Shown here: in pieces, positions 4,801 to 36,932 of the stretch
Layout: every line of letters starts with the position of its first letter
Position numbering within the stretch: position 1 is the stretch's first letter
Virus record (IMG/VR): IMGVR_UViG_3300033150_002070
Location: 1-64,000 of that record
DNA from: a virus
Direction: 5' to 3' (one strand)
DNA length: 64,000 bases
The notes under the pieces: model-generated
What the model saw: only the letters and a program-made list of their open reading frames with translations
What the model was told of the DNA's origin: nothing
Database searches by the model: none
Program-made: the position numbers and the translations under genes

Positions 4801-6923
4801 TTGTAAAGATTTATAGTGTGGAACCTAACAGTAATGATTCCGCCTATTGGAACCTTGACAGCGGTTGAGTAGGACCTTCCAGCTTTGGTGTACTGCTTGC
4901 CGTTTATCTCGACGATAGTCTTTGGATCGACGTTGTCGGCCTGCGAGAACGCAAGTGCGAAATCGTAGTTATAGACCCCCTTGGTCTTCGTCTCAGTTGC
5001 TTTCCAGACGATACAGTGGAGTTCAGCGTAGGTCTTGAGCTTCAAAATTTCAGTTGTAAGTCCATTCAGTGAGTATTTCATCGTCTGGAACTTGACCATA
5101 GCGCCTTCCGATGCTTCAGCCTTAGAGTAGCGAATCAGGGCCTCGCGGAGCTCCTTCTCTGTCTTTACATAGGTTGAAGGGGCAAGGTTGAAGCGGTATT
5201 TAAGATTGGGCTTACCAATCGTTGACTGTTCAAATTTGAAACCCCCTGTGAGCTTTTTCATCCTCTCCACATACGGCTCATTGTGAATATCTTGGCCGTC
5301 AAGGTACAGAAGATCGAAAACGTTAAGGACGATTTCGGAATCATCAGCCTTGCCCTTCGAGTGCAGATAGCCTGCCGTGTCCTCCCTTGGAGCGTGAGAA
5401 CCAGACGGCCAGTACTCTACCTCAACATCAAACACAAACTCGTCGTGCGGAAACTGAAGCGCCTCAGCAACGGTATTCGGAAGCCTGTCTGTAATATCAG
5501 CCCCATCATCGGAGTAAATGATTACCCGATCCTTCATCCTGTGAAGCTGACAGTGGATGCCGTCGTATTTTTTCTGAACAACCGACGGGACGATCTCAGT
5601 CTCAAGCTTCTTTCTCTTGGCAATCTCTTTGAGAACTTTAACCATACTGTCAACAGAGTATTCCTCGCCAGAACGGTAGCCGTGCAGAGACGAGATCGAG
5701 CTTTTAAGAGGATAGAAAAACTCTCCGAGGGTAATCTTATCGTTCCGCTTGGCCTTCTCAGCCTGCTCTTTAGCCCGCTTGCTCTTGGCCCGAACTTCAG
5801 CTTTGACCAAGTCATCCCGAGGCTCGAAGTCGCCCATCTCGTGAATCTTGTTCTCGGGATTAACCCGCTCAATAGTCATATCATAAAGCTCGATATAGTC
5901 TGTGAACGGACCCATGTTATCCCACAAGAAGTGGAACCGGTCCCAGTACTCCGGAGGGAAAGACCGCATAATCCGCCACTCGATTATATGCTTAAGCTGA
6001 TCTGGAAGATCCTCGGACTCCCTTACTACAATATCAATATCACCCTCAGTCTTCCCATTTACAACGAGCCCTCCAACAAGCATTATAAACGGCGAGCGGA
6101 CTTTGAACTCCTTGAAGTACTGCAAGACTTCATCGAGCGTAATCTCTTTGCCTCGCTTAACTCCGGAAGGGTTAATCGGCGCAAAACGGCGTGCTTTCTC
6201 AAGTGAAAGATCAAGCTCAAACTCCGGATCGGTTATAGCAGAATCGGCAAGAAGGCCCAAAAGCTCAGCATCGCTAAGATCAACAAGTTTAATCTCGTCG
6301 GCAAACTTGACTTTGCGGATGAAAGTCTGAACTCCAGCCGGCACGATAGCACGTCTTGGAGTTGAGAATTTCACAACCGGCTTAAATGAGTAGAACCAGT
6401 AGGTAGATCTCGATCCCCACCACTTATCAGCTTCAGCCTCGGAAACTCTGTGCTTTGCAGACAGCTTCTTGAAGGTGGATCTATCGCCCTCACGAATATC
6501 AGTGATCCTGATAGCTCCATAAACCTTCCTGTCGCTTACAAGCCAGAAGGTTCTATCAAGAGCAGACGGAAACTTTGCCGCCTTAACGATAAGGGTCTTC
6601 TTGCCGTCCGCAATCAGCCTTCCATGAGGCTCAACTAGGTAAAGACCAGGTTTGATCGCCTTCCTTAAAGCACGCTCAGCCTCATCACCAGCAAAAGACT
6701 TCATCTCATCAGGCTTGAATGTAGTCGAGCCTCTCAAGACAAGCTCGGCTACAATGTCGTCGAGAATGTTTCTCACCTGAGAGATCGAGTACTTCAGCTT
6801 TACCCCGCGCCTTAACGATGAAAGCCAAGCGAGTGCAATCCTGAAGTCGTCCCTAAGAACCTCATCTGAAAGGCTGGTCGGATCGTACTTGTCAAGATTT
6901 TCAATCTTAACTAAATCCATCAC
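1797..6923 (-). CDS. Multidomain nucleotidyltransferase / ATP-dependent ligase / DNA methyltransferase / PE-like protein with intein
   Basis: A 1708-aa fusion. Residues about 90-200 look like a PUA/ASCH-type beta domain. About 275-350 carry a GG-x(7)-DIDIVV nucleotidyltransferase motif. About 420-720 are an ATP-dependent polynucleotide ligase with the KYDG adenylation lysine at residue 452. About 750-1070 are a class I DNA methyltransferase (GSK, FDPMAGWGS, later DPPY near 965). About 1090-1187 resemble a LigD 3'-phosphoesterase (HADVRIEHG, like HYDFRLE). A 336-aa intein interrupts residues 1188-1523, and the extein resumes with TEWLTFEGV. Start is GTG 6923 or, more likely, ATG 6920, which overlaps the previous stop as TGATG. 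No strong internal ribosome sites were seen. It lies in the late head operon, so virion packaging or DNA end processing is possible, but that is inference. Confidence 0.8.
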   Translation of the reverse strand: MMDLVKIENLDKYDPTSLSDEVLRDDFRIALAWLSSLRRGVKLKYSISQVRNILDDIVAELVLRGSTTFKPDEMKSFAGDEAERALRKAIKPGLYLVEPHGRLIADGKKTLIVKAAKFPSALDRTFWLVSDRKVYGAIRITDIREGDRSTFKKLSAKHRVSEAEADKWWGSRSTYWFYSFKPVVKFSTPRRAIVPAGVQTFIRKVKFADEIKLVDLSDAELLGLLADSAITDPEFELDLSLEKARRFAPINPSGVKRGKEITLDEVLQYFKEFKVRSPFIMLVGGLVVNGKTEGDIDIVVRESEDLPDQLKHIIEWRIMRSFPPEYWDRFHFLWDNMGPFTDYIELYDMTIERVNPENKIHEMGDFEPRDDLVKAEVRAKSKRAKEQAEKAKRNDKITLGEFFYPLKSSISSLHGYRSGEEYSVDSMVKVLKEIAKRKKLETEIVPSVVQKKYDGIHCQLHRMKDRVIIYSDDGADITDRLPNTVAEALQFPHDEFVFDVEVEYWPSGSHAPREDTAGYLHSKGKADDSEIVLNVFDLLYLDGQDIHNEPYVERMKKLTGGFKFEQSTIGKPNLKYRFNLAPSTYVKTEKELREALIRYSKAEASEGAMVKFQTMKYSLNGLTTEILKLKTYAELHCIVWKATETKTKGVYNYDFALAFSQADNVDPKTIVEINGKQYTKAGRSYSTAVKVPIGGIITVRFHTINLYKDPETGHIRVHLYEPIFHEYRESDKYPDSISTAIRIGKESNTLSVKEASDELDDEIVKWTGSKARFVDKILKHMPEDMTGMTLFDPMAGWGSVPFAAIERGCEVILNDANPICYYWLKAVLEGEPLTDDEINAFLNAPKVEGFLTKRRDLIPRPHRREARMHLDGLVHFAMKLPRRKMWTAMGAIASTLIAWAGSYENLYEFKNKPHRASDSIEMNKSTVKRLLGRVHRYQEKYGGHGRVTCRNAFNMKIPKVDIVYYDPPYIAEKLRIKEGDTRYERYWKLASFLLQRETRLPRSDVQKFIELGKKLGKSCKLLLISDTGDDSSAFKWEEVFPNAEIDKFTVISTGYVRGQHRPKKEKVVKVGKLATSDLKKSDLLLEIPPEDQTYRYVVQHHYRGKTCHADVRIEHGPRKDILVGFTLDDLIRGAITKPVLTLADAKKFDADDSHFKIGWNSGKWKTRKRGDKYVNVEVVCQKKAPEPCLVKGSLVWTATGLVPIERIKKGDLVLDASGEWTKVLEVGRVPLKSRLFEVRASRSLKYRMTEHHPVLTESGWVKVSELSKSDKLVFPKVKPTGELDSLIYLQFAQNGKYSTAKVLPLDYLTGYVFGVILGDGHISETGITISLSPDKKRPIEMIEKFCERVERPYKLTGHGTENYFSVAIYDSKLAEFIRSIAYHGKRGSSYLKGLPPIFLQRTNTEFLKGYCDGLVDSDGYRTSRETRFTNSSIELMSSFLFARLLLGEPCAFTENRYEKFGANRVKFTTQKLDIEQEYYSADDEKILLTVWESSEIWKGNCKYVWNLQTEDGTFCLANFATHNTEWLTFEGVTKPGTVGATKQYPGVFHIIERGTCEYGAQKPWIHEFWFHPTKGKGLAGRIIFRQIANIWREKDDVLEKLAEDPFADLDEVVTAERGIEDLPVGQEGFGEAESGWVCIKPVDPEPYVLSRRAERKKWLPPKGISALPAEMRKKIPDELRYWTMEGAKALEARAEIRRRIKRGELKLW
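2355..3362 (-). other. Intein (336 aa) with LAGLIDADG-type endonuclease
   Basis: The intein starts with Cys (CLVKGSLVW) and ends with HN followed by Thr, the standard splice junctions. Block A (CLVKGSLV), block B (MTEHHPVL), and LAGLIDADG-like helices (LTGYVFGVILGDG and FLKGYCDGLVDSDG) are visible, then the terminal FATHN. It is inserted within the PE-like C-terminal part of the fusion protein. The DG/DSDG endonuclease acidic residues are retained, so homing activity is plausible. Confidence 0.93.
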
Positions 6924-32524: not shown

Positions 32525-32553
32525 TTGACAAATTATTTGAATTTTCTTATATT
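32525..32553 (+). promoter_or_regulatory. Strong sigma70-type promoter for the Ro60/Y-RNA operon
   Basis: TTGACA (32525-32530), 17-bp AT-rich spacer, TATATT (32548-32553). The Ro60 start codon is at 32616 with AAGGAGGACTT before it. Confidence 0.8.
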
Positions 32554-32615
32554 TAGATTGAAATTAAGAGACTGAAACAGTAACAGTCACCGTAGCTAAA
32601 CACTAAGGAGGACTT

Positions 32616-34163
32616 ATGCCTTCCAGGAATATCTTTAACACTAAGACTTCTCATCTTCCCAAGGTTAATACGGTGAACGAGGCTGGTGGAACAGCCTATA
32701 AGTTTTCGCCGAAGCATACGCTGGCCCAGCTTGCCGTCACAGGCACATTCGAAAAGACGTATTATACGGACGGCGAAGCTCAGCTTGATAAGCTCAAGGA
32801 GATACTTCCTGAGATCGAGCCTGAGTTTATAGCCAAGTGCGCAGTCTATTCTAGAAGGCGTGGGTTTATGAAGGATATGCCGGCCTTCCTTCTTGCGTAT
32901 CTTTCGACAAGACACCTGGGACTGTTTGAGCGGATCTTTCCCAAGGTCGTGAATAACGCTCGTATGCTTCGAGGCTTCGTCCAGATAGTAAGAAGCGGGG
33001 CCGTCGGAAGACGATCTTTCGGATCGTGCCCCAAAAGGCTCATCCGGAAGTGGGTCGTCCAGCGAGACTTGTCCCAGCTTTTCAGGGATTCTATCGGCGA
33101 GCCTTCGATGGGCGACATTATCAAGATGGTACACCCAAAGCCCAAGAGCAAGGCACAGGAAGCCTTATTCGGGTATCTTATCGGAAGTGAGGTTAACGCC
33201 GAGTATCTTCCTGATCTTGTAAAGGAGTTCGAGGCTTTCAAGGCGTCTCCCGACTCCACGAAGGTTCCCGATGTTCCGTTCATGCTTCTTACAGGCGTAA
33301 ACTTCGGAGAGCAAAAGAGGGCTATCTGGAAGCGTATCCTTGAGAACGCCTCGTGGCAACAGACAAGGATAAATCTCAACACTTTCAAGCGTCACGGCGT
33401 TTTCGACGATCCTGAGACGGTTGAGCTTGCGGCAAAGCGTCTTTCGGATCGGGATCTTATTCTGAGGGCCAAGGCGTTCCCGTTCCAGGTATATGCAACG
33501 CTCAAGTTCGCAAGATATGACCATAGGATCGAGAAGGCCTTACTCGACGCTCTTGAGGTAACAGTTGAAAATATCCCTGAGTTTGAGGGTAACGTCCTTG
33601 TCTTTCCAGATGTTTCAGCCTCAATGGGTTCACCTATAACGGGTGAGCGCGGCTCTGCTTCGAGCAGAGTCCAGTGTGTAGATGCAGCCGGGCTTTTTGC
33701 GGCGTGCATACTCAAGAAGAATAAAAACGCTGTGGTCTGGCCATTTGACACACGGGTCTATCACTGGGTTCGTCTGAGCCCGTTCGACACAGTCTATACT
33801 AACGCCGAAAAGATCGCCGGGCTTTGTGGTGGTTCGACTGCAATCCACGCTCCTCTTGAAATGGCCAACGACGAGGGGCTTAAGGGCGATCTTGTGATCT
33901 ACATATCGGATAACGAGTCCTGGGTTGGGTCTGAACCGTTTGAAACGCGGACGATCAAGGCCTGGGATAAGTTCAAGCGGCGCAATCCCAACGCGAAGCT
34001 CGTCTGCATAGACATTCAGCCTACAGGTTCAACTCAGGCACCCGACGATCCGTCAATCCTTAACATAGGCGGGTTTTCTGATTCGATCTTTGAAGTAATC
34101 CGTCTTTTCGCAACTGGATCGCCGGATCACTGGGTAGAGGTCATTGAGAATGAGAGGATCTAA
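32616..34163 (+). CDS. rsr: Ro60 homologue (TROVE + von Willebrand A), 515 aa
   Basis: A bacterial/phage Ro60 (Rsr) protein. Residues about 10-320 form the TROVE HEAT-repeat ring (TYYTDGEAQLDKL; AKCAVYSRRRGFMKDMPAFLLAYL; GEPSMGDIIKMVHPKPKSKA), and about 325-515 a vWA domain with MIDAS D332-x-S-x-S (DVSASMGS) and CGGSTAIHAPL. Length and order match the family (about 530 aa). Known Ro60 proteins bind Y RNAs and structured RNA ends and, with PNPase, form an RNA-degrading complex in some bacteria. The Y-RNA-like genes start 6 bp after the stop codon. It has its own promoter, so it is set apart from the operon before it. Confidence 0.93.
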   Translation: MPSRNIFNTKTSHLPKVNTVNEAGGTAYKFSPKHTLAQLAVTGTFEKTYYTDGEAQLDKLKEILPEIEPEFIAKCAVYSRRRGFMKDMPAFLLAYLSTRHLGLFERIFPKVVNNARMLRGFVQIVRSGAVGRRSFGSCPKRLIRKWVVQRDLSQLFRDSIGEPSMGDIIKMVHPKPKSKAQEALFGYLIGSEVNAEYLPDLVKEFEAFKASPDSTKVPDVPFMLLTGVNFGEQKRAIWKRILENASWQQTRINLNTFKRHGVFDDPETVELAAKRLSDRDLILRAKAFPFQVYATLKFARYDHRIEKALLDALEVTVENIPEFEGNVLVFPDVSASMGSPITGERGSASSRVQCVDAAGLFAACILKKNKNAVVWPFDTRVYHWVRLSPFDTVYTNAEKIAGLCGGSTAIHAPLEMANDEGLKGDLVIYISDNESWVGSEPFETRTIKAWDKFKRRNPNAKLVCIDIQPTGSTQAPDDPSILNIGGFSDSIFEVIRLFATGSPDHWVEVIENERI

Positions 34164-34168
34164 GTTTA

Positions 34169-34305
34169 GCCCTGGATGCCGAGGGGGATTACATCCGCAT
34201 GGGACGGCGTGGTTACAGGTTCGAGTCCTGTCGTCCAGCCCTAGTGGCTGGATGTAGCTCAATCGGCAGAGCACGATAGTAAATCTCTCTCACTATTGCC
34301 AGGGC
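34169..34305 (+). ncRNA. Y RNA 1 with circularly permuted tRNA-like domain (Yrl type)
   Basis: The closing stem is GCCCTGG (34169-34175)/CCAGGGC (34299-34305). Then ATGCC faces ACTATTG as an internal loop, and a 9-bp helix forms from GAGGGGGAT and ATCTCTCTC, followed by the TAC bulge and ATCC. These match RNAs 2 and 3. In between lies a tRNA module in permuted order: T-arm ACAGG-TTCGAGT-CCTGT (34215-34231), acceptor 3' strand CGTCCAGCC, loop CTAGT, acceptor 5' strand GGCTGGATG, TA, then D-arm GCTC-AATCGGCA-GAGC (34257-34272). This is the architecture reported for YrlA-type bacterial Y RNAs. Confidence 0.85.
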
Positions 34306-34317
34306 AAAGGAAGTCAA

Positions 34318-34380
34318 GGCCCAGATGCCGGTTGGGGTTACATCCTGGTTGCGGATTACCTCACCACTTCTTGCTGAGCC
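34318..34380 (+). ncRNA. Y RNA 2, short form
   Basis: GGCCCAG (34318-34324)/CTGAGCC (34374-34380) closing stem with one mismatch, then ATGCC, a GGTTGGGGT strand, TAC bulge and ATCC that pairs with GGAT (34353-34356) over a 7-nt loop. Same order and bulge as RNAs 1 and 3. Confidence 0.75.
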
Positions 34381-34395
34381 TTGTAAGATTCAGCA

Positions 34396-34471
34396 GGCCC
34401 AGATGCTGGTTGGGACTACATCACAGTGACTAGCAGTTACTGACGGATGTCTCAACCGATTTTGCTGGGCC
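34396..34471 (+). ncRNA. Y RNA 3
   Basis: Perfect closing stem GGCCCAG (34396-34402)/CTGGGCC (34465-34471); ATGCT/GATTTTG internal loop; 9-bp helix GGTTGGGAC/GTCTCAACC; TAC bulge; ATC/GAT; apical hairpin CAGTGAC-TAGCA-GTTACTG. The bulged helix is the probable Ro60-binding site. Confidence 0.82.
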
Positions 34472-34481
34472 TTATAAGTTT

Positions 34482-34561
34482 GGCTCCGGCGGAGGGGTTC
34501 CTTCCTCCTTCCGGTCATATAAGGAGCTGAAAAGCAGGCCAAGCACCTCTTCGCCGGAGCC
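34482..34561 (+). ncRNA. Fourth structured RNA downstream of the Y RNAs
   Basis: Perfect 10-bp closing stem GGCTCCGGCG (34482-34491)/CGCCGGAGCC (34552-34561), extended by GAGG/CCTC across a TT bulge. It lacks the TTACATC module, so it is not an obvious Y RNA. It is followed by TTATT and may also end transcription. Confidence 0.6.
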
Positions 34562-34582
34562 TTATTAGAACGGAGGTCTGCG

Positions 34583-35401
34583 ATGGAGCTAACTGCAACT
34601 CAGGTCAACGACTTTCTTACATGCCCGCGGATGTACTGGTATGCGCATGTTCTTGAGCTACCGCTTGAGTATGCACGTCCTGAGATGGTGGTTGGGAAGG
34701 CGATCCATGCCGCGATAGCCTCAGTGCATGACGATTTTGAAAAAAGCGCGGATCAGTCGGATCTTATTCAAAGCGGCATTGATACATACTTTAAAAGCAT
34801 CGAGAGTCAGCTTAGCGAACATCCTGAGTTTGGCCTTGATATTTTCGACCTCAAGCCTTTTGAACCTAAAGCTCTCTCCATGATAACCTCGTATCTTCAG
34901 GACGGGCGCAACTTCCAGGCTCCGGAGGTTTTGACCGAAGTTCACTTTGAGTTTGAGATTGACGGTCTTAAGCTCAGGGGTTACATAGACCAGCTTAGAT
35001 TTCACCCAAGTCGAGTTGATCTAGTTGAGATTAAGACTGGTAAGTTTCCTCCGTCTGATGCTTTCCTTGCGATGAGCCCTCAGTTTTCGATCTACCGTCT
35101 TGCTGTGGAACGCTCGCCGGAAATCAAGGAAATGGTTGGTGATCGTAAGATCGCTATCTTCCACTTACAGCTTCAGGACTACCTGAAGCGCCGCGGGGGC
35201 GATGTGTACTACCCAGTCTTCCGGGACAAAATGTCTCTTAAGAGTGCGGTAAATGAGTTGATGGTGATCAAGGAATCTATCGAGCATAATCTATTTCCGA
35301 GGAGAGTGCTGTCGTTTTCATCGTGCAAGGGCTTTTGTAGATACGTCGACAGGTGTTTGAGTGAGTTTGGGGGCATTGGCCGGGTACCAAGTATCTTTTA
35401 G
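34583..35401 (+). CDS. Cas4/RecB-like PD-(D/E)XK nuclease with Fe-S cysteines, 272 aa
   Basis: Starts LTATQVNDFLTCPRMYWY, the usual entry of the PDDEXK_1/Cas4 group with the first Cys. Core nuclease residues are GYID136 and E149-I-K151 (VEIKTGK). The last 30 residues hold C-x3-C-x5-C (SCKGFCRYVDRC), completing a probable 4Fe-4S site. Likely a 5'-3' exonuclease producing ends for the Sak4-like recombination protein coded next. Confidence 0.82.
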   Translation: MELTATQVNDFLTCPRMYWYAHVLELPLEYARPEMVVGKAIHAAIASVHDDFEKSADQSDLIQSGIDTYFKSIESQLSEHPEFGLDIFDLKPFEPKALSMITSYLQDGRNFQAPEVLTEVHFEFEIDGLKLRGYIDQLRFHPSRVDLVEIKTGKFPPSDAFLAMSPQFSIYRLAVERSPEIKEMVGDRKIAIFHLQLQDYLKRRGGDVYYPVFRDKMSLKSAVNELMVIKESIEHNLFPRRVLSFSSCKGFCRYVDRCLSEFGGIGRVPSIF

Positions 35402-35420
35402 AAAAAAAAAGGAGGTCTGT

Positions 35421-36122
35421 ATGGCTGAGCTTGAGTTTTACTCACCTGGTGAGAATGAGTGGAAGTCGGTTCTCTTGTATGGGCAGCCGAGAACCGGCAA
35501 GACTGTTTGCGCTTCAACTGCCCCGAGGCCGCTTTTTCTTGACTGCGAAGGCGGTCTTCTGTCTATCAAAGACAGGGACGTTAAGGCTGTGAGAATCAGG
35601 TCTATCGCTGATCTTGAGGCGGCCTACACCTGGCTTGAAAAGCACGGTAAAGATGAGAAGCGTGAGTTTGACACTGTGGTAATTGACTCAATTACCGAGC
35701 TTCAGGTAATCTTAGTTGAGGACCTTACTAAGAAGCAGGGGGCTCAAACTCCCGACATACGCACCTGGGGACTTGTCTTTACCAAGATGCGTTCGATTAC
35801 CAAGGCGTTCAGGGAGCTTCCGTACCATCTTGTTTTTACTGCTCTTGAAAGAACCTTCCGCGATGAGATTACCGGCAAGGTGTACTTCGGGCCTGATCTT
35901 CTTGGTCAGAGTGCCGACAAGGTTCCAGCTTATTTTGACTTCATCTTCCGAACAGTTACTAAGCCTGTAACGGATTCCAAGGGTCTCAAAACCGGTGAAG
36001 TTTCATACCGGCTTATCACACGTGGAACCGACTCGTACTTTGCGGGCGGGCGTAGTCCTGTCCTTGAGATCGAGGAGGAGCCTGATCTTACTAAGATTTT
36101 TGAGAAAGTGGGGGCGGTGTGA
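35421..36122 (+). CDS. Sak4-like RecA-fold ATPase, 233 aa
   Basis: Start ATG 35421 after AAAAAAGGAGGTCTGT. Walker A GQPRTGKT (residues 21-28), Walker B TVVIDS near 90, and GPDLLGQSADKVPAYFDFI late, as in phage AAA_24/Sak4 single-strand annealing proteins. Neighbours, an exonuclease and a DUF669-like protein, form the usual recombination set. Confidence 0.82.
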   Translation: MAELEFYSPGENEWKSVLLYGQPRTGKTVCASTAPRPLFLDCEGGLLSIKDRDVKAVRIRSIADLEAAYTWLEKHGKDEKREFDTVVIDSITELQVILVEDLTKKQGAQTPDIRTWGLVFTKMRSITKAFRELPYHLVFTALERTFRDEITGKVYFGPDLLGQSADKVPAYFDFIFRTVTKPVTDSKGLKTGEVSYRLITRGTDSYFAGGRSPVLEIEEEPDLTKIFEKVGAV

Positions 36123-36346
36123 TGTTCAGGATAGTTGTATGTTTCAAGGATCAGGTTATAAGTCCATGGGCAGGTGGTAAGATGAGAGTGCTTGCTGTGA
36201 AATCCGAGTCGAGGCCGGTTCTCACACTTCGCGGTGAGTACTTCGCGGTGAATGTAAGCAGATCAACTGTCGGTGATAAGGTAGATGGGCAGTTGTATCT
36301 TTCGAGGGATGCGGTAGCGTACCTGTACGTAGAGAAGGAGGCTTAG
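36122..36346 (+). CDS. Small hypothetical protein, 74 aa
   Basis: TGATG overlap with the Sak4-like gene. Beta-rich (RPVLTLRGEYFAVNVSRSTVG). Function unknown. Confidence 0.55.
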   Translation: MFRIVVCFKDQVISPWAGGKMRVLAVKSESRPVLTLRGEYFAVNVSRSTVGDKVDGQLYLSRDAVAYLYVEKEA

Positions 36347-36571
36347 ATGGAAAGGCGTATTTTAATCGGCGAGAAAGGGGGTGAGGTGATCTTTGAAGTC
36401 GAGCCGTCTTCAATTGACGAGCTTTCGGAGCTTCTGGTAGAGCTTTTCAAAGCTCACCCGGATGCGTTCGATGCTCTATCGGCGGTAGTTAGGATAGCTG
36501 AGGTTAAGATTGAGCTTGAACTAAGGAGGTCTGAGTATGGCAAGGTTTACCATTCCGAAGGACTTGGATGA
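36347..36571 (+). CDS. Small hypothetical protein, 74 aa
   Basis: ATG directly after the previous stop; overlaps the next gene by 35 bp. Acidic helical part (DELSELLVELFKAHPDAFDALS). Function unknown. Confidence 0.55.
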   Translation: MERRILIGEKGGEVIFEVEPSSIDELSELLVELFKAHPDAFDALSAVVRIAEVKIELELRRSEYGKVYHSEGLG

Positions 36572-36932
36572 TGTTGAGGAGTTTCCGGTTGTAAAGCCGG
36601 GTGTGTATAATGCGGCCATCAGGAAGGCTGAGGTTCGGCCTTCGCAGGATGGAACAAGCGACAATCTGTGGCTCCACTGGATTATTGAGGATGGGGACGA
36701 GGAGGAGATTGGTAAGCCTGCGATCCAGATTATATCGCTTAAGGAGCAGGCCCTCTTTCGTCTCAAGCAGGTGATGGTAGCGCTTGATATGGAGGCGTCT
36801 GGAACCGAGTTTGACACTGATGATTTTCTTGATCGTCGAGCTCAGATTTCGGTGTCGCACCGCGAGTGGCAGGGCCAGACGCGCCAGGACATCAAGGTCT
36901 TAGGACCGCCGACTGATGGGATTAAATTCTAA
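36537..36932 (+). CDS. DUF669-like single-strand DNA-binding protein, 131 aa
   Basis: PKDLDDVEEFPVVKPGVYNAAIRKAEVR, a beta barrel, then FRLKQVMVALDM and FLDRRAQISVSHREWQGQTRQDI follow the phage DUF669 plan. These serve as SSBs beside Sak4-like annealases. Confidence 0.72.
   Translation: MARFTIPKDLDDVEEFPVVKPGVYNAAIRKAEVRPSQDGTSDNLWLHWIIEDGDEEEIGKPAIQIISLKEQALFRLKQVMVALDMEASGTEFDTDDFLDRRAQISVSHREWQGQTRQDIKVLGPPTDGIKF

What the first reader, a model, noticed from the sequence alone, without database searches (positions are those of the whole stretch)
32616..34561. Phage Ro60 with a tandem cluster of Y-RNA-like genes
Seen: a full-length TROVE-vWA protein followed 6 bp later by three RNAs sharing one plan (7-bp closing stem, ATGCC/T loop, 9-bp helix, TAC bulge, ATC), plus a strong dedicated promoter. 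Known: Ro60 binds Y RNAs, and some phages carry Ro60. Inference: a phage RNP for RNA surveillance or for redirecting host RNA decay, with several interchangeable Y RNAs.
Basis: partly seen in the sequence, partly recalled or inferred. Interest (0 to 1): 0.93.

Follow-up and report, generated by a model that had tools for sequence, protein, structure and literature searches.

The report
Phage Ro60 with three Y RNAs
A bacterial virus carries a gene for the RNA-binding ring protein Ro60, immediately followed by three small non-coding "Y RNAs", one of which imitates a transfer RNA; the RNAs are real, but this is a new example of a known kind of system.

Summary
Confirmed. ORF 32616-34163 is a full-length Ro60/Rsr: sequence and fold both match solved Ro60s, and the MIDAS residues are intact. 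It is followed directly by three bacterial-type Y RNAs. Covariance models built without any window sequence find exactly these three in 64 kb: the tRNA-mimic (YrlA-type) at 34165-34307 (E 1e-19), and two short YrlB-like RNAs at 34314-34382 (E 4e-10) and 34392-34473 (E 5e-12). All 16 handle pairs of the short model covary among phage and bacterial relatives. The only near-perfect sigma70 promoter in the window (32525-32553) lies just upstream. Phage Ro60 and phage YrlA are already reported, so this is a new member of a known kind. Arrays of 3-9 Y RNAs turn out to be usual in this Ro60 clade. Side findings: these phages are unusually tRNA-rich, though this one has no tRNA genes, and the seam of the tRNA-like heads often keeps a CCA, suggesting capture from tandem tRNA genes. 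What the particle does in infection is inferred.

The parts
32525..32553 (+). sigma70-type promoter TTGACA-17-TATATT upstream of Ro60
   Evidence: 11 of 12 consensus matches; only site this good in 64 kb on either strand; in a 22% GC intergenic gap. Consensus only, no transcript data.
32605..32612 (+). ribosome binding site AAGGAGGA, 3 nt before the ATG
   Evidence: read directly from the sequence
32616..34163 (+). Ro60/Rsr protein, TROVE HEAT-repeat ring plus vWA domain, 515 aa, MIDAS D332-x-S334-x-S336, T408, D432
   Evidence: Pfam, PDB sequence hits, AlphaFold and Foldseek; the five MIDAS residues are invariant in 49-50 homologues
34165..34307 (+). Y RNA 1, YrlA type: Ro60 handle carrying a permuted tRNA-like head
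   Evidence: own model R2 81.4 bits, E 1.3e-19; Rfam YrlA 43.7 bits, E 1.6e-8, below the gathering score of 69
34215..34231 (+). T-arm of the tRNA-like head, ACAGG-TTCGAGT-CCTGT
   Evidence: sequence; helix 3 of A3 97.9% paired with covariation; GGTTC.A..CC invariant across 14 YrlA-type RNAs
34232..34254 (+). acceptor-like stem closed by a 5-nt loop (CGTCCAGCC-CTAGT-GGCTGGATG, 9 bp): the permutation seam
   Evidence: sequence; seam analysis
34257..34272 (+). D-arm of the tRNA-like head, GCTC-AATCGGCA-GAGC, with the GG needed for the elbow
   Evidence: sequence; helix 5 of A3 99.1% paired
34314..34382 (+). Y RNA 2, short YrlB-like, small head
   Evidence: model R1 43.1 bits, E 3.5e-10; Rfam YrlB 16.2 bits only; weak on single-sequence folding, z -0.8
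34392..34473 (+). Y RNA 3, YrlB-like with an extra apical hairpin as head
   Evidence: model R1 49.5 bits, E 5.2e-12; folds at -38.8 kcal/mol, z -6.05; Rfam YrlB 21.1 bits
34482..34561 (+). fourth structured unit: 17-bp hairpin with the same leader and tail as the Y RNAs but no AUGC/UAC handle; role unknown
   Evidence: inverted repeat and direct repeats D3, D4; fold z -3.41; not hit by R1 or R2
34376..34388 (+). shared tail GAGCCTTGTAAGA after RNA2; repeated at 34467-34479 and 34557-34569 (possible 3' processing site)
   Evidence: direct repeat family D3; the processing role is inferred

Best explanation
A phage-encoded Ro60 ribonucleoprotein module. Ro60 and the Y RNAs are most likely transcribed together from the promoter at 32.5 kb, and the RNAs are cut out of the 3' part of the transcript. 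Each Y RNA binds the outside of the Ro60 ring through the same handle (closing stem, AUGC loop, helix with the UAC bulge) and offers a different head. RNA1's head folds like the elbow of a tRNA with the anticodon arm replaced by the Ro60 handle; RNA2 and RNA3 have a small head and an extended hairpin. The heads act as swappable tethers or gates. In infection they bring host tRNA-binding proteins or an exoribonuclease (PNPase in the bacterial RYPER precedent) to structured or damaged RNA held by the ring. Shown here: gene identity, the fold, the RNAs, their conservation. Inferred: co-transcription and processing, binding, partner, effect on infection.
For: Ro60 identity and intact MIDAS. Three Y RNAs found by independent models. 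Handle helices covary: 93.6% of cells paired against 60% shuffled and 37-54% slid; 95.6% against 74% and 39-50% for the tRNA-mimic class. Ro60 and Y RNAs are neighbours in 36 of 55 viral and 36 of 39 bacterial loci, with at least 3 RNAs in 25 and 29 of them. The bacterial precedent (Rsr tethered to PNPase by Y RNA through a tRNA-like domain) is reviewed in PMC8394870 and PMC7790460. Different heads on one handle within one array.
Against: No expression, binding or partner data exist for this phage. No PNPase or other exoribonuclease was recognised among the window ORFs scanned, and RtcB is absent from the whole record, so any partner would have to be the host's. RNA2 is weak by single-sequence folding. 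19 of 55 viral Ro60 loci show no Y RNA within the DNA fetched.
Confidence: 0.6

Rival explanations
1. Anti-defence role: the tRNA-like Y RNA is an uncleavable decoy or sponge for host enzymes that destroy tRNAs during infection (anticodon nucleases, tRNA-cleaving abortive systems), or helps clear cleaved tRNAs.
For: The head keeps the tRNA elbow but has no anticodon loop. Hughes et al. (PMC7790460) suggest YrlA could be a competitive inhibitor of an anticodon nuclease, and report it is not cleaved. Related Ro60 phages are strongly enriched in tRNA genes, which others explain as evasion of tRNA-targeting defences (PMC10264068).
Against: Two of the three window Y RNAs have no tRNA-like head. Anticodon nucleases usually need the anticodon arm, which is missing. 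The window phage carries no tRNA gene and no RtcB.
Confidence: 0.2
2. Translation support: the Ro60/Y RNA particle is a chaperone or quality-control station for phage tRNAs and other structured RNAs.
For: 42 of 48 Ro60 phage records carry tRNAs, often 20-45, and Y RNAs lie within the tRNA arrays of several; medians about 9.5 against 0 in size-matched random viral contigs, p 1.2e-4.
Against: This phage has Ro60 and Y RNAs without a single recognisable tRNA gene in 71.7 kb. The control set is small and many records are fragments.
Confidence: 0.12
3. Not Y RNAs: remnants of a decayed tRNA array plus chance hairpins downstream of a Ro60 gene.
For: The middle of RNA1 matches junctions between neighbouring tRNA genes in other phages; RNA2 folds weakly on its own.
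Against: Independent covariance models hit all three RNAs end to end. The outer handle stems, which no tRNA has, covary across phages and bacteria.
Confidence: 0.01

Closest known systems
Salmonella rsr-yrlBA-rtcBA operon (YrlA RF02553, YrlB RF02565; YrlA crystal structure 6CU1)
   Same: Ro60 gene followed directly by Y RNAs of both types; same handle; same permuted T-arm/acceptor/D-arm head
   Different: no RtcB in the phage record; order is YrlA-type first, then two YrlB-like RNAs; window RNAs score below Rfam gathering cut-offs (43.7 against 69; 21 and 16 against 97)
Deinococcus radiodurans Rsr / Y RNA / PNPase (RYPER)
   Same: Ro60 fold (2nvo, Foldseek E 3.6e-17); Y RNA as partner of the Ro60 protein
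   Different: about 18% identity over the structural alignment; no evidence here of a PNPase contact
Ro60 and YrlA of isolated phages: Vibrio BONAISHI, Gordonia GMA2, phage csAssE-Sib; Thermus phage phiLo Ro60 structure 9l5y; Ro-like proteins of many Mycobacterium and Streptomyces phages
   Same: phage-borne Ro60; YrlA-type RNAs beside Ro60 in BONAISHI, GMA2 and csAssE-Sib
   Different: those Ro60s are only about 22-25% identical to the window's, which belongs to another, mostly metagenomic branch
Myxococcus phage Mx1 Ro60 (WNM70118.1) and IMG/VR relatives L002, L006, L007
   Same: closest phage Ro60s (43-51% identity); L002 has the same three-Y-RNA layout 3' of Ro60
   Different: no Y RNA found within 6 kb of Mx1 Ro60; both Mx1 and the L002 record carry many tRNA genes, this phage none

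Membership tests
Ro60/Rsr (TROVE) proteins | TROVE HEAT-repeat domain plus C-terminal vWA domain | tested here: met
   Pfam vWA_Ro60 61.7 bits (cut-off 27.7), TROVE 23.3 (cut-off 23); full-length fold match to Ro60 structures only
Ro60/Rsr (TROVE) proteins | MIDAS motif DxSxS...T...D in the vWA domain | tested here: met
   D332, S334, S336, T408, D432 invariant in 49-50 homologues
Ro60/Rsr (TROVE) proteins | binds Y RNA on the outer ring surface | not testable with these tools
   needs a binding assay
Bacterial Y RNA | encoded beside Ro60 | tested here: met
   RNA1 starts within 6 nt of the Ro60 stop; adjacency conserved in 36/55 viral and 36/39 bacterial loci
Bacterial Y RNA | 5'/3' closing stem plus conserved AUGC loop and bulged helix forming the Ro60 handle | tested here: met
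   independent model hits; covariation
YrlA (RF02553) | head with T-arm, acceptor-like stem and D-arm in permuted order | tested here: met
   RNA1
YrlA (RF02553) | score at or above the Rfam gathering threshold | tested here: not met
   43.7 of 69 bits; phage BONAISHI YrlA (59.3) also falls short, so the threshold looks strict for phage members. RNA1 is called YrlA-type, not an Rfam-certified YrlA.
YrlB (RF02565) | score at or above the Rfam gathering threshold | tested here: not met
   21.1 and 16.2 of 97 bits; filed as YrlB-like handle RNAs, not as YrlB
RNA repair operon (rtcBA) | RtcB ligase in the same locus or genome | tested here: not met
   no RtcB in the 71.7-kb record; only 3 of 48 related records have one
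RYPER (Ro60-Y RNA-PNPase) | Y RNA tethers PNPase | not testable with these tools
   needs pull-down or reconstitution

The most novel reading that the evidence does not exclude
The heads of phage and bacterial Y RNAs are repeatedly captured from tandem tRNA genes: the 3' half of one tRNA, its CCA, the spacer and the 5' half of the next become a permuted tRNA module on the Ro60 handle. Phage arrays would then be evolving sets of mimics of different tRNAs that couple Ro60 to the tRNA economy of the infected cell. RNA1 of the window would be one such captured head, with RNA2 and RNA3 as non-mimic heads.
Probability: 0.35. Interest if true: 0.7.

Novelty: new member of a known kind. Interest (0 to 1): 0.45.

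Why it matters
It gives a well-supported, compact phage Ro60 RNP (one protein, three Y RNAs, one promoter) outside the studied Deinococcus and Salmonella cases, in a phage without its own tRNAs or RtcB, which separates Ro60/Y RNA function from phage tRNA handling and from the rtcBA repair operon. The models made here also show that Rfam's YrlA and YrlB cut-offs miss the window's Y RNAs and those of the isolated phages scanned, so Y RNAs are probably under-annotated in phage genomes.

Tried and rejected
Rfam at gathering thresholds found nothing in the window, and ARAGORN found no tRNA. DNA-level BLAST of the locus against phages found nothing. Chance hairpins or decayed tRNAs were rejected by independent models and covariation. 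Coupling to RtcB repair was tested and not supported. RNA2 looked weak by single-sequence folding (z -0.8) but is confirmed by the model. The fourth hairpin was considered as a fourth Y RNA and not accepted, because it lacks the handle motif and no model hits it. The miRNA, snoRNA and other low-score Rfam matches are chance. 'Escherichia phage ECO95 1-6-1' (L005) has full YrlB and YrlA scores but is a 1.7-kb unverified assembly fragment, probably bacterial, and is not used as phage evidence. The founding papers (Chen 2014, Wang 2018, Sim and Wolin 2018/2020) are not in the held library or were not readable here; my statement that Chen 2014 reported Y RNAs in bacterial and phage species is from memory, supported indirectly by PMC7765460.

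Full report
What was claimed. A Ro60 gene at 32.6-34.2 kb followed by three RNAs of one plan, with its own promoter, in a phage.

The protein. ORF 32616-34163 is 515 aa. Pfam finds the Ro60 vWA domain (1e-16) and TROVE (4.5e-5, just over its cut-off). It aligns over its whole length with Ro60 chains in the PDB and more strongly as a profile. Its AlphaFold model (pLDDT 88.8) matches only Ro60 structures at E<=1e-3: Xenopus and human Ro60, Deinococcus Rsr, and two TROVE entries, 9kop and 9l5y, the latter the Ro60 of Thermus phage phiLo. The MIDAS residues D332, S334, S336, T408 and D432 are invariant in 49-50 homologues. The record is a 71,720-b IMG/VR virus record with portal, terminase large subunit and head maturation protease genes, so the phage label is sound.

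The RNAs. Rfam at its gathering thresholds sees nothing. At relaxed thresholds it aligns RNA1 end to end with YrlA (43.7 bits, E 1.6e-8) and RNA3 and RNA2 weakly with YrlB (21.1 and 16.2 bits). Related Ro60 loci were fetched from viral contigs and bacterial genomes. The AUGC...TAC motif is about ten times denser just downstream of Ro60 than elsewhere, and the helices around it score far above shuffled controls. Two alignments were made from these loci without any window sequence. The short class (46 sequences) has 16 handle pairs, all with double compensatory changes; 93.6% of cells pair, against 60% in shuffles and 37-54% when the partners are slid. The tRNA-mimic class (28 sequences) shows the same in 24 of 28 pairs. 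Models built from them were run over the window: the short model hits RNA3 (5e-12) and RNA2 (3.5e-10) and nothing else up to E=10; the tRNA-mimic model hits RNA1 (81.4 bits, 1.3e-19) and, weaker, the other two through the shared handle. E-values are rough, as the calibration is short.

Anatomy of RNA1. The Ro60 handle (34169-34175 with 34299-34305; AUGC; 34181-34189 with 34283-34291; UAC bulge) carries, in order, a T-arm (34215-34231, loop TTCGAGT), a 9-bp acceptor-like stem closed by a 5-nt loop (34232-34254) and a D-arm (34257-34272, loop with GG). That is a tRNA cut at the anticodon side and closed at the acceptor end: the circular permutation described for YrlA (PMC11472068). The anticodon arm is replaced by the Ro60 handle. 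The elbow letters are invariant across YrlA-type RNAs. RNA2 has a small head, RNA3 an extended hairpin. A fourth hairpin (34482-34561) shares the leader TAAGTTTRGC with RNA1 and the tail GCCTTRT with RNA2/RNA3 but has no handle; its role is open.

Expression. One promoter-like site (TTGACA-17-TATATT, 32525-32553) is the only match of 11/12 or better in the window. No terminator-like site was found between Ro60 and the RNAs, which suggests one transcript; the shared tails could be processing sites (inferred).

How usual it is. Counting model hits, 36 of 55 viral and 36 of 39 bacterial loci of this Ro60 clade carry Y RNAs beside Ro60, with at least three in 25 and 29 loci and up to nine in two phages. 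So three in tandem is typical for the clade. Isolated phages BONAISHI, GMA2 and csAssE-Sib also carry YrlA-type RNAs beside their more distant Ro60s, and a Vibrio phage paper already notes that phages have YrlA (PMC7765460). A Ro60/TROVE protein is also noted in jumbo phages (PMC7824862). In a quick tree the window protein sits in a mostly viral set of 33 rows (31 viral), with weak backbone support.

Mechanism. In bacteria Y RNA tethers Ro60 to PNPase and directs it to structured RNA (PMC8394870). The same layout here makes a phage-encoded adaptor with swappable heads the most likely reading (0.6). The main rival is a tRNA decoy against tRNA-cleaving defences, an idea floated for YrlA by Hughes et al. 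(PMC7790460). Against a pure decoy role, two of the three RNAs have no tRNA-like head and the anticodon arm is missing. Against a link with RNA repair, RtcB is absent from this record and present in 3 of 48 related ones.

Two wider observations. First, Ro60 phages are rich in tRNA genes: 42 of 48 records have some, often 20-45. Records of 40-100 kb have a median of about 9.5, against 0 in 19 random viral contigs of 40-63 kb (p 1.2e-4; small control, fragments included, not corrected for relatedness). The window phage is an exception with none. Second, the seam of the permuted heads keeps NCCA exactly where a tRNA's 3' end would be in 10 of 98 cases, against 7 of 795 at other offsets (p 1.7e-6, relatedness not corrected). 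Heads fall into several D-arm classes (TAGCTCAG, TCGTCTAATGG, TGGCCGAGTGG, TGGTGTAACGG). BLAST of RNA1 hits junctions of neighbouring tRNA genes in other phages. One phage Y RNA frame (L032:6234-6375) holds a complete unpermuted tRNA-Ile(AAU). Together these suggest repeated capture of heads from tandem tRNA genes, which is a proposal, not a demonstration.

Verdict. It is a new member of a known kind, with useful side observations.

Noticed in passing
window 34482-34561: Fourth structured unit with the Y RNA leader and tail but without the Ro60 handle; no model hits it.
   Followed up: partly
records behind L002-L064 and L113-L116: Ro60 phages are strongly enriched in tRNA genes (42 of 48, often 20-45), while the window phage has none.
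   Followed up: partly
YrlA-type RNAs in L002, L062, L022, L088, L089, L090, L096 and others: The permutation seam of the tRNA-like head often keeps NCCA, as if made from two neighbouring tRNA genes.
   Followed up: partly
L032:6234-6375: Phage Y RNA frame holding a complete, unpermuted tRNA-Ile(AAU) at 6277-6349 in place of a permuted head.
   Followed up: partly
L003:9837-9975, L084:1898-2034: tRNA-like Y RNA heads with a Leu/Ser-like D-arm (GTGGCCGA), unlike the usual GTAGCTCA class.
   Followed up: partly
L025 and L062: Arrays of about nine Y RNAs beside a phage Ro60.
   Followed up: partly
L002:9928-10324 and L116:4198-4609: Phage tmRNA gene directly next to the Ro60/Y RNA cluster; GMA2 (L116) also has a Pistol ribozyme match at 4919-4975.
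   Followed up: no
window 34583-36932: Genes after the cluster are a recombination/replication set (PD-(D/E)XK exonuclease, Sak4-like annealing ATPase, DUF669 ssDNA-binding-like protein).
   Followed up: no
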